Positions 7,825 through 14,213 of a DNA stretch of 34,807 nucleotides are shown here, piece by piece. The notes under the pieces are model-generated. The model searched no databases, was not told the DNA's origin, and saw only the letters and a list, made by a program, of their open reading frames with translations. The position numbers and the translations under genes were made by a program. The stretch lies in assembly GCA_019245115.1 (NCBI GenBank), contig JAFARZ010000401.1, positions 1 to 34,807 on the forward strand. The letters are read 5' to 3'. Position 1 is the first letter of the stretch; every line of letters starts with the position of its first letter. The DNA comes from Streptosporangiaceae bacterium. Its GTDB lineage: Bacteria > Actinomycetota > Actinomycetes > Streptosporangiales > Streptosporangiaceae.

Positions 7825-8655
7825 TCACAAGTCACGGGACTGGCGGCGCAGGGCCTGGCTGACCAGCGCACCGGCTCCGGCAGCGACCGCGGCGAACGCG
7901 GCCAGCGGTAGCCAGTCGCTGGACAGACCGAAGAGCACGCTGTCCCTGAGCACGCCGACGCCATATGTCACGGGGTTCACGAATTGCAACCAGCGGACGC
8001 TGGCAGCCATCCGGTCGGCCGGATAGAACGCCGGGCTCGCGAAGAGCAGGATCGGGGTCAGCACGTTCACCAGCACCATGAACCGCTGGAAGTCCCGTAC
8101 GCTCGCGGCGAGCAGCAGGTAGAGGCAGTTGAAAGCGGGAGCGGTGGCCATCACCCCGGTGAGCAAGGCAGCCCACTGACCCGCCGACCAGTGCACCGGC
8201 AGCACCAGCGCGGAAACGATCAGGGCAGCCAGCGTCTGCGCGAGAACCAGGGCGGAGCCGGCGATCAGCTTACCGGCGATGAAGAAGCTCCGCCGCGATG
8301 GATACGAGGAAAGCTCCAGCGTCATGTTGCCCAGGCGCTCCTGGAAGAGCGCCGTTCCAGCGGTCGTGGAGGCGGCGAGCAGTGAGGAGAACAGCAACCC
8401 CGGAACAACGAACTCCGGGTAACCGATGATCCGGCCGTGGTAGGAGACGCCCGGCAGCAGGTGGGCCAGTGACGTGGCGAACAGCATGATATAGGCGCCG
8501 GTGGGGACGACCGCCAATAGCAGGTTGGTGCGATCCCTGGTCAACAGCCGCAGTTCGCGGTGCAGGACCGCCGCGAGCTCCCCACGCCGCCACGCCGCCT
8601 GCCTGCCGGGGAAGCATCCGGTCTCGGCCGGTCCCGTCCGGGCTGTCTGGTTCAT
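7825..8655 (-). CDS. ABC-2-type transporter permease (RiPP cluster exporter)
   Basis: A 276-residue membrane protein with an N-terminal amphipathic stretch (VLHRELRLLTRDRTNLLLAVV) and six hydrophobic segments, in the layout of ABC-2/NodJ/DrrB permeases; FVVPGLLFSS and the ending VNPVTYGVGVLRDSV fit the family. With the ATPase encoded immediately upstream it should form an exporter. The ATG at 8655 overlaps the ATPase stop (8652-8654), a 4-bp translational coupling. As last gene of the RiPP operon it is the natural candidate to secrete the processed peptide; drug-type substrates are the alternative. Confidence 0.88.
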   Translation of the reverse strand: MNQTARTGPAETGCFPGRQAAWRRGELAAVLHRELRLLTRDRTNLLLAVVPTGAYIMLFATSLAHLLPGVSYHGRIIGYPEFVVPGLLFSSLLAASTTAGTALFQERLGNMTLELSSYPSRRSFFIAGKLIAGSALVLAQTLAALIVSALVLPVHWSAGQWAALLTGVMATAPAFNCLYLLLAASVRDFQRFMVLVNVLTPILLFASPAFYPADRMAASVRWLQFVNPVTYGVGVLRDSVLFGLSSDWLPLAAFAAVAAGAGALVSQALRRQSRDL

Positions 8656-12332: not shown

Positions 12333-14213
12333 TTAGCCCGCCAGCCAGCCGCGAACCCAGGCAAGTGCTATACGAGACGAACGCGAGTGCGTCAGGCGCC
12401 GCTGCCCGCGCCCGCGCCTCCACTGCACTTGCAGCTGCAACCCATCCGCGCGACGAAGGCCTCCGCCGTCATCGTCGGCTTGTGCCACTTGCCATTCATG
12501 CGTTTCCCCTTCTCGATCGCGTGCCGGACTTCCTGCCGGTGATGTCGACCGTAGGATTCGCGCGCCGGAGACGGAAAGATCACTGAATGGGGACGGTCGC
12601 AGAAAAAATAAGACCTTGACGGAACCTGCCGCGTGGCGGGCGGCCAGGTAGGCCATGGTCATGGCGATGCCCAGGGTGGCGCCGGGGCCTGGGTAGCCGC
12701 CGCCGGTCCAGAACGCGGCCGCGTTTCCGGCGGCGTACAGGCCGGTAATCGGTTGCCCGGACGGGGTGAGTACGCGGCTGGACGTGTCGGTGACCGGACC
12801 GCCCTTGGTGCCGATGGTGCCGGGCAGGACCTGGATCGCGTAGTACGGGGGGCGGTCGATCGGGCCGAGGTTCGGGTTCGGGCGGGTGCCGGGATCGCCC
12901 ATGTACCGCTCGTAGGCGTTGCTGCCGCGGCCGAAGTCCGGGTCGGTTCCCGCGGCGCAGTTCGCGTTCCAGCGGCCGGTGGTCCGGGCGAGCGTCTCGC
13001 CGGGTGCGCCGATGGCTTCGGCCAGTTCCGCCAGGGAGCCGCTCTGCTTCGCCCAGCCCGGCATCGTGGCCCGGGAATCGGCGCCTGGTACCGGGAAGTC
13101 CGACCGGTACCCTTCATCGAAGATCATCCAGGCGGTGGCGTTGCCGGGTTGGGCCAGCATGGCCTTGACGAACTCGTTGTAGGGCAGGGCCTCGTCGGCG
13201 AACCGGTGGCCCGCGCGGTTGACGATGATCTGGCGCGGCAGCGCCCGTTCGCGTATCAGCGATCGGTAGTACGGTTCCTCGTCTGGAACGGCGAGCATCG
13301 GCATCCACCAGGCCTGGCCGGTGTTGTCCAGGGCCGCGCCGAGTTCCTCGGCGATCCGTAGCGCGTCACCGGTGTTGGTCGGCACCGCCCCGGTGGCGTC
13401 CGCGACCGGACCCGGCAGCAGGCGCTTACGCAGCTCCGGATTACGGTCGAAGCCGCCGGTGGCCATGATCACCGCGTTCGCCGGAATCGTGAGGGGGTCT
13501 GAGTCGCGGTCCAGTTCGGCTGTCACGACTTCACCGGACGGGCCGAGCCGGACCGCGGTCAGGCGGGTCTTGGTCAGCACGCGCACGCCGACGCGTATGG
13601 CACCGTCGAGCAGGGTCGCGGCCAGGGCCACTCCGCCAGCGACGGTGCCGCGGCGTAGCCGGCCGGCCAGCTCGTCCTGGTCGTACCGGCGCGGATAGCG
13701 CCATCGTTCCCAGTCCGCGTGGGTGAGCGGCAGATATCCGGGGGGGCGCCGGACCTGCCCGGCGAGCGTCGCGGACGTGACCGGCACGATGTCCTGGGCC
13801 CGGCCGCCCGGGGACGCGCCGGGCAGGGACGGGTGATAGTCGGGGTAGCTCTCGCATGGCGTGAACCGGATGGCGGAATGCCGCTGCACGAAACATGCCA
13901 TTTCTGGGGCCGCTGTCAGGAACGCGCTGACCATGTGCGGGTAGCGGTCGCCGTAGACCGCGGTCAGGTACTCGCGCGCTTGTATGTCGCCGAAGGCCGG
14001 CAGCCACACGCGGCCGAAGGACAGGGCCGTCGTGCCGCCGAGTTCGGCGGCACGCTCGACCAGGGTCACCCGCGCACCGTGAACCGCCGCGGTCAGCGCG
14101 GCGGTCAGCCCGGCCGCGCCGCTGCCGGCCACCACGACATCGGTCCCGGTAGCCGGCGACTGGCGTCGGTTCCGCGCTGCGGACAGCGGTGTGATCTCCT
14201 CCCGATCAGCCAC
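12333..14213 (-). CDS. KstD-like FAD-dependent oxidoreductase with non-homologous C-terminal run-on
   Basis: The frame encodes 626 residues. The first ~530 form an FAD_binding_2 flavoprotein like 3-ketosteroid delta-1-dehydrogenase/fumarate reductase: VVVAGSGAAGLTAALTAA and VTLVER (dinucleotide site), NAVIMATGGFDRN, and a C-terminal FAD contact GLYAAGNAAAFWTGGGYPGPGATLG. The substrate is unknown. The start is the GTG at 14213, overlapping the ThuA stop by 8 bp. After AARHAAG (about 12620) the frame stays open for about 95 residues with rare codons (TTA, TTT TTT, CTA, CGA) and no family resemblance, running through the RiPP precursor gene in another frame. The original stop is probably lost, or there is a frameshift near the T6 run. 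The true protein may end near 12600. Confidence 0.8.
   Translation of the reverse strand: MADREEITPLSAARNRRQSPATGTDVVVAGSGAAGLTAALTAAVHGARVTLVERAAELGGTTALSFGRVWLPAFGDIQAREYLTAVYGDRYPHMVSAFLTAAPEMACFVQRHSAIRFTPCESYPDYHPSLPGASPGGRAQDIVPVTSATLAGQVRRPPGYLPLTHADWERWRYPRRYDQDELAGRLRRGTVAGGVALAATLLDGAIRVGVRVLTKTRLTAVRLGPSGEVVTAELDRDSDPLTIPANAVIMATGGFDRNPELRKRLLPGPVADATGAVPTNTGDALRIAEELGAALDNTGQAWWMPMLAVPDEEPYYRSLIRERALPRQIIVNRAGHRFADEALPYNEFVKAMLAQPGNATAWMIFDEGYRSDFPVPGADSRATMPGWAKQSGSLAELAEAIGAPGETLARTTGRWNANCAAGTDPDFGRGSNAYERYMGDPGTRPNPNLGPIDRPPYYAIQVLPGTIGTKGGPVTDTSSRVLTPSGQPITGLYAAGNAAAFWTGGGYPGPGATLGIAMTMAYLAARHAAGSVKVLFFLRPSPFSDLSVSGARILRSTSPAGSPARDREGETHEWQVAQADDDGGGLRRADGLQLQVQWRRGRGQRRLTHSRSSRIALAWVRGWLAG
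12392..12499 (-). CDS. Candidate RiPP precursor peptide (PqqA-like leader, CSCKC core), 35 aa
   Basis: The peptide opens MNGKWHKPTMTAEAFVARMG and ends CSCKCSGGAGAGSGA. The W-x-KP start resembles the PqqA-type leader (family knowledge: W-x-KP early in PqqA). The three alternating Cys followed by a Gly/Ala/Ser-rich tail are a plausible substrate for thioether (sactipeptide/ranthipeptide-type) crosslinks. The ATG at 12499 has AGAAGGGGAAA about 5 nt upstream, while the longer open frame to 12583 has no comparable site. It is the first small gene before the radical SAM, PqqD, peptidase and exporter genes. It overlaps, in another frame, the open C-terminal extension of the upstream flavoprotein frame. 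No homologue is recalled with certainty; assignment rests on motif and position. Confidence 0.72.
   Translation of the reverse strand: MNGKWHKPTMTAEAFVARMGCSCKCSGGAGAGSGA

What the first reader, a model, noticed from the sequence alone, without database searches (positions are those of the whole stretch)
7825..12499. Candidate new RiPP system: CSCKC peptide, radical SAM/SPASM, PqqD, Ser-His-Asp peptidase, ABC exporter
Seen: a 35-residue peptide gene followed on the same strand by a radical SAM/SPASM enzyme, a PqqD-like protein, an S26-type peptidase-like protein and an ABC-2 exporter, with 4-20 bp overlaps between all genes after the maturase. Known: PqqD-like domains guide radical SAM enzymes to peptide leaders. 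Inference: this is a complete make-modify-cleave-export pathway. The combination with a PqqA-like leader, an alternating-Cys core and an archaeal/ER-type catalytic triad does not match a RiPP class I can name.
Basis: partly seen in the sequence, partly recalled or inferred. Interest (0 to 1): 0.92.

Follow-up and report, generated by a model that had tools for sequence, protein, structure and literature searches.

The report
StsA-type sactipeptide cluster with own peptidase
This is a set of genes for making, probably trimming and exporting a small sulfur-bridged peptide; it belongs to an already described family from soil bacteria, and its one less familiar part is a cutting enzyme that the best-studied gene cluster of the family lacks at this place.

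Summary
The 35-aa peptide passes NCBIfam's StsA sactipeptide model (44.6 bits, cut-off 42) and the maturase passes the StsB model (697.6, cut-off 625). The Streptomyces sparsogenes locus (L057) has the order precursor-StsB-StsC(PqqD-like)-ABC ATPase-ABC permease and nearly the same core (CSCDCSGGAGAGSG against CSCKCSGGAGAGSG). In 48 related loci a CxC peptide frame precedes StsB in 48 and a PqqD-like gene follows in 48. What is left is the Ser-His-Asp peptidase: it sits in 8 of the 48 loci plus the window, only within the short-precursor StsA branch, and not in the loci of S. sparsogenes and four relatives. It resembles the catalytic domain of ER signal peptidase SEC11 and the LexA fold, shows no membrane anchor, and has a C-terminal half without a family match. 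Best reading: a sactipeptide pathway whose leader this peptidase removes. No chemistry or cleavage was tested.

The parts
12392..12499 (-). StsA-type precursor peptide, 35 aa: leader with WHKP (WxxP) motif, core CSCKCSGGAGAGSGA
   Evidence: NF045558 44.6 bits, cut-off 42; W, P, 3 Cys, 3 Gly invariant in 14 of 14
10763..12241 (-). StsB-type radical SAM/SPASM sactipeptide maturase, 492 aa
   Evidence: NF045574 697.6 bits, cut-off 625; CX3CX2C and seven SPASM Cys invariant in 49 of 49
10431..10766 (-). StsC-type discrete PqqD-like leader-binding protein (RRE)
   Evidence: PF05402 51.8 bits, cut-off 23.4; next to StsB in 48 of 48 relatives; 7 NCBIfam PqqD-type models match, none over its cut-off
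9659..10450 (-). SEC11/LexA-fold Ser-His-Asp peptidase without evident membrane anchor, with an extra C-terminal alpha/beta region; proposed leader peptidase
   Evidence: Peptidase_S24 27.8 bits, cut-off 23.3; S32, H70, D85, D91 invariant in 9 of 9; SEC11A E 2.2e-5; fold match
8652..9662 (-). ABC exporter ATPase (DrrA-like)
   Evidence: ABC_tran 103.9 bits; homologue behind StsC (or behind the peptidase) in the 13 other short-precursor loci (12; L108 read by eye)
7825..8655 (-). ABC-2 exporter permease (DrrB-like)
   Evidence: ABC2_membrane 86.9 bits; homologue behind the ATPase in the 13 other short-precursor loci (12; L108 read by eye)

Best explanation
A sactipeptide pathway of the StsA family. 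The PqqD-like protein binds the WHKP motif of the precursor leader and presents it to the radical SAM/SPASM enzyme. That enzyme joins the three core cysteines by sulfur-to-alpha-carbon bonds to residues of the Gly/Ala/Ser-rich tail (2 Da lost per bond). The SEC11-like peptidase then removes the leader, perhaps just before the first Cys, and the DrrAB-like transporter exports the product. Shown here: gene set, order, family membership, conserved motifs and catalytic residues. Shown elsewhere for StsA/StsC: binding that depends on the WxxP motif (PMC12710340, passages read); sactionine formation by StsB is recalled from a paper that is not held. Inferred: bond pattern, cleavage by the peptidase, export. 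Odds: about 0.92 for the StsA-family sactipeptide part alone; the figure below is for the whole statement, leader cleavage by this peptidase included.
For: Curated StsA and StsB models passed; S. sparsogenes L057 scores 84.5 and 819.6 on them. Core nearly identical to StsA; W, P, C, C, C, G, G, G invariant in 14 of 14. PqqD-like gene in 48 of 48, CxC peptide frame in 48 of 48. Eleven maturase Cys invariant in 49 of 49. The peptidase gene lies between StsC and the exporter with 20 and 4 bp overlaps; its full-length form was found in 0 of 147 other genomes of the class, at most 17 candidates scored in each, and in no plasmid record at E 1e-6, so it looks tied to these clusters.
Against: No chemistry tested. 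The precursor is only just over its cut-off (44.6 against 42); of 5 short precursors scanned (of 14), 4 pass and L065 does not (27.6). The peptidase is missing from 5 of 14 short-precursor loci, S. sparsogenes included, so another protease would have to serve there. The residue before the first Cys is small (G/S/A) in 6 of 9 loci with the peptidase and 1 of 5 without (read; several of these loci are close kin), weak support for a cut there. Its C-terminal half is unexplained.
Confidence: 0.62

Rival explanations
1. The StsA reading holds, but the SEC11-like protein is not the leader peptidase; it matures another protein, or has a binding or immunity role.
For: The S. sparsogenes locus and four related ones have no homologue of it; its C-terminal half has no Pfam match; the cleavage site is not defined.
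Against: Catalytic Ser, His and Asp invariant in 9 of 9; in all nine it lies between StsC and the exporter; not seen full length elsewhere in the searches made.
Confidence: 0.3
2. A new RiPP class: the maturase makes a different link or modification from StsB.
For: 65% is the highest identity of the maturase to any of the 48 relatives; precursor only just over the StsA cut-off; long-precursor relatives have CxC rather than CxCxC.
Against: Both curated models passed; core nearly identical to S. sparsogenes StsA; the window lies inside the StsA branch with support 100/100.
Confidence: 0.05
3. A redox-cofactor pathway of the PQQ or mycofactocin kind rather than an exported peptide.
For: Maturase has homology to MftC (TIGR03962 131.1 bits) and a PqqD-like partner.
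Against: Both below the curated cut-offs (265 for MftC, 46 for PqqD); exporter genes in the operon; no other PQQ or mycofactocin gene among the six cluster proteins scanned.
Confidence: 0.02

Closest known systems
StsA/StsB/StsC sactipeptide cluster of Streptomyces sparsogenes (Precord et al. [quoted passage not shown] StsA-StsC binding in PMC12710340, passages read)
   Same: Precursor with WxxP and CSCxCSGGAGAGSG, radical SAM/SPASM maturase (61% identity), discrete PqqD-like protein, ABC ATPase and permease in the same order
   Different: No homologue of the peptidase in the 17 kb fetched, and no room for one between StsC and the ABC genes; precursor with a longer C-terminal tail
StsA-related long-precursor clusters (NF045559, with NF045560 aroma-sacti domain; models tested on L010 only)
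   Same: StsB-type maturase, PqqD-like neighbour, W..P and CxC..GSG tail
   Different: Precursor of about 90 aa, two core Cys, no homologue of the peptidase, and no homologue of the window's ABC genes directly behind the PqqD-like gene
ER/archaeal signal peptidase I (SEC11; TIGR02228)
   Same: SM, HR and GD motifs, Ser-His-Asp set, LexA-like fold
   Different: No evident membrane segment, below the TIGR02228 cut-off, extra C-terminal region
Mycofactocin maturase MftC
   Same: Radical SAM/SPASM architecture, 131.1 bits to TIGR03962
   Different: Cut-off is 265; no mycofactocin precursor or partner gene among the cluster proteins scanned

Membership tests
StsA-family sactipeptide | Precursor passes NF045558 | tested here: met
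   44.6 bits, cut-off 42; S. sparsogenes scores 84.5
StsA-family sactipeptide | Maturase passes NF045574 | tested here: met
   697.6 bits, cut-off 625
StsA-family sactipeptide | Discrete PqqD-like StsC next to the maturase | tested here: met
   PF05402 51.8 bits; 48 of 48 relatives
StsA-family sactipeptide | WxxP leader motif needed for StsC binding in StsA | tested here: met
   WHKP in the window; W and P invariant in 14 of 14. Only the motif was tested; binding is from PMC12710340 passages. Lys(-18) and Pro(-17), which also mattered there, are not conserved in the window
StsA-family sactipeptide | CxCxC core with Gly-rich tail | tested here: met
   3 Cys and 3 Gly invariant in 14 of 14
StsA-family sactipeptide | Formation of Cys sulfur to alpha-carbon bonds | not testable with these tools
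   Needs mass spectrometry or NMR
Signal peptidase I, archaeal/ER type | Catalytic Ser, His and Asp in SM, HR and GD motifs | tested here: met
   S32, H70, D85, D91 invariant in 9 of 9; SEC11A aligned over these motifs
Signal peptidase I, archaeal/ER type | Curated cut-off of TIGR02228 | tested here: not met
   39.6 bits, cut-off 51.85
Signal peptidase I, archaeal/ER type | Membrane anchor | tested here: not met
   Highest 19-residue hydropathy mean 1.42 in the window protein and 1.07-1.86 over the nine (1.86 at residue 265 of L060, near its C-terminal end), against 2.35 for the permease; a simple hydropathy test only
Mycofactocin / PQQ maturation | Curated cut-offs of MftC (TIGR03962) and PqqD (TIGR03859) | tested here: not met
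   131.1 against 265; 26.4 against 46

The most novel reading that the evidence does not exclude
A soluble, SEC11-like Ser-His-Asp protease with its own C-terminal domain serves as a dedicated leader peptidase for a sactipeptide: a cytosolic offshoot of the signal peptidase fold recruited to RiPP maturation, present early in the StsA branch and lost in the lineage of the model species.
Probability: 0.5. Interest if true: 0.5.

Novelty: new member of a known kind. Interest (0 to 1): 0.3.

Why it matters
It shows that this cluster need not be treated as an unknown class, and gives 13 other short-precursor StsA-type clusters for comparison. The practical lead is the peptidase: the S. sparsogenes locus has no homologue of it, while the window's sub-branch does, so the gene is a direct candidate for the leader-removal step and may help to make the mature peptide and test its activity.

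Tried and rejected
New RiPP class: rejected on the StsA/StsB model matches and the S. sparsogenes comparison. PQQ or mycofactocin: rejected on curated cut-offs. The LuxR-type gene at 6984-7733 as a conserved part: at E 1e-15 one hit (L098, weak) in the 48 loci; but the listing of L054 in the same call shows response-regulator-like frames near its cluster, so a regulator of this general kind is not excluded. The FAD oxidoreductase and the ThuA-like protein: no hit in the 48 loci at E 1e-15, so left out.

A first genome scan with the maturase alone found no relatives. The scan with a two-sequence alignment used two short patterns and gave 54 loci; I used the 46 nearly full-length ones (L054-L099) and dropped eight partial ones (L100-L107). 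Relatives without those patterns would be missed, so this is a sample, not a census. L010 and L062 have identical maturases and may be one species counted twice. An iterated StsC profile drifted into wrong reading frames, so StsC counts come from the single-pass search; the peptidase count was 8 in both (47 loci, 48). A strict peptide search over 47 loci found no candidate in six (L063, L064, L071, L085, L089, L090); a pattern search over 48 found these six, missed only L108, whose peptide was read by eye, and gave four extra matches (one each in L063, L065, L093, L094). In one search some rows begin a few residues off the likely start; the invariant columns are not touched by this. A family search of 396 genomes of the phylum found one member over the cut-off, the window itself; most hits there were ordinary radical SAM enzymes.

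Literature: a search for an S26 peptidase with RiPP terms listed two papers in which the passages show 'S26' as a figure number. A review of RiPP leader proteases holds none of the terms S26, S24, signal peptidase, SPase or sactipeptide (PMC10885120, term search only). Searches for streptosparsamycin (a name I guessed), for the title of the Precord paper with sactionine, and for aroma-sacti found nothing.

Full report
On the minus strand, from 12499 down to 7825, lie a 35-residue peptide gene, a radical SAM/SPASM enzyme, a PqqD-like protein, a Ser-His-Asp peptidase-like protein, an ABC ATPase and an ABC-2 permease, with overlaps of 4, 20, 4 and 4 bp after the maturase. Pfam gives domains for the five larger proteins and none for the peptide. 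Third-position GC is 0.80-0.88 in all six genes, as expected of real genes in a GC-rich genome.

The family is known. In NCBIfam the peptide passes NF045558, 'StsA family sactipeptide RiPP' (44.6 bits, cut-off 42), and the maturase passes NF045574, 'StsB family radical SAM/SPASM domain sactipeptide maturase' (697.6 bits, cut-off 625). The paper that characterised StsB of Streptomyces sparsogenes (Precord et al. 2023, PMC10288494) is not held; its content, sactionine bonds included, is my recollection. A 2025 mSystems paper (PMC12710340; passages read, part 2 of the reference list) cites it, calls StsC a discrete RRE of a sactipeptide, and reports that StsA variants W(-15)A/V(-14)A and K(-13)A/P(-12)A were not retained by StsC. 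It also reports that K(-18)A/P(-17)A lost binding; those two residues are not conserved in the window's peptide.

Comparison with relatives. An alignment-based scan of the genome collection gave 54 loci, of which 46 encode a nearly full-length StsB relative; one more came from an unnamed relative (L010; its maturase is identical to that of L062) and one from a Streptantibioticus cattleyicolor plasmid (L108): 48 in all. The scan used two sequence patterns, so it is a sample. S. sparsogenes ATCC 25498 is among them (L057); its peptide and maturase score 84.5 and 819.6 on the two models. A CxC frame with a Gly-rich tail lies before StsB in 47 of 48 by pattern and in the 48th by eye (L108). A PqqD-like gene follows in 48 of 48. 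In the 14 short-precursor loci, the window included, W, P, three Cys and three Gly are invariant, and the window's CSCKCSGGAGAGSG differs from S. sparsogenes CSCDCSGGAGAGSG at one place. Of these 14 precursors five were scanned against NCBIfam; four pass NF045558 and L065 does not. Three radical SAM Cys and seven SPASM Cys, plus C313, are invariant in 49 of 49 maturases.

The tree of 49 maturases splits into 14 StsA-type short-precursor rows and 35 long-precursor rows (support 100/100). The window groups with Virgisporangium, Verrucosispora and Micromonospora rows (99/97). The root is midpoint only, and the program warns of long branches (L095, L096, L108, L055 and the window), so only this broad picture is used.

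The peptidase. A homologue lies between StsC and the ABC genes in 8 of 48 loci (L054, L055, L059, L060, L061, L065, L095, L097) and in the window. All nine are in the StsA-type branch; the five rows without it (L056, L057 S. sparsogenes, L058, L099, L108) form one group (96/84), with the ABC genes straight behind StsC. Absence is shown for these loci, not for whole genomes. The tree needs two changes for this label; one origin near the base of the branch and one loss is the simplest story, but it depends on the root. Ser32, His70, Asp85 and Asp91 are invariant in 9 of 9. The best sequence match among solved structures is human SEC11A, E 2.2e-5, aligned over the SM, HR and GD motifs. The predicted fold (mean pLDDT 80.7) matches LexA C-terminal domains first (E 5.4e-5), SEC11A at rank 7 (E 8.9e-4), and UmuD and bacterial signal peptidases (50 of 774 matches shown, aligned ranges not given). 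A hydropathy scan shows no likely membrane anchor. It falls below the cut-off of the archaeal signal peptidase model (39.6 against 51.85), so it is not filed as a signal peptidase. Residues from about 128 to 263 form an alpha/beta region in the model without a Pfam match. A profile of the nine found no full-length match in another genome: of 148 genomes of the class (own included), six others matched at E 1e-8, over at most 142 of 253 positions, with at most 17 candidates scored in each genome. No plasmid record matched at E 1e-6.

How it most likely works: StsC binds WHKP, StsB makes sulfur-to-alpha-carbon links from the three Cys to the tail, the peptidase removes the leader, the transporter exports. 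The first step is supported by published binding tests on StsA; the bond type rests on family membership; the cut and the export are inferred. The residue before the first Cys is small (G/S/A) in 6 of 9 loci with the peptidase and 1 of 5 without (read; several loci are close kin), a weak hint at a cut there.

Verdict: an StsA-type sactipeptide cluster, new member of a known kind. The peptidase-bearing sub-branch is a modest new lead. Searches of the held library listed no paper on it (listings only, showing 15 of 50), but the founding paper could not be read, so it may already be noted there.

Noticed in passing
window 12333-14213 (-): The FAD-dependent oxidoreductase reading frame upstream has no stop before it runs through the StsA gene in another frame. 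Third-position GC drops from 0.87 in its first 533 codons to 0.59 in the rest, so its 3' end looks lost or altered.
   Followed up: partly
window 6984-7733 (+): A LuxR-type response-regulator-like gene converges on the cluster; at E 1e-15 it has one weak hit in the 48 related loci, though L054 shows other regulator-like frames near its cluster.
   Followed up: partly
L096 8001-9374: Celeribacter persicus (Pseudomonadota) carries an StsB relative (48% identity) with a long-type CxC precursor and a PqqD-like neighbour, the only non-actinomycete among the 46 full-length hits, suggesting transfer between phyla.
   Followed up: no
L108 6762-10551: Streptantibioticus cattleyicolor carries an StsA-type cluster without the peptidase on its 1.8 Mb plasmid pSCAT; the collection lists no genes there.
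   Followed up: partly
L093 7416 and 7817: Two CxC..GSG frames lie upstream of the maturase, possibly two precursor genes.
   Followed up: no
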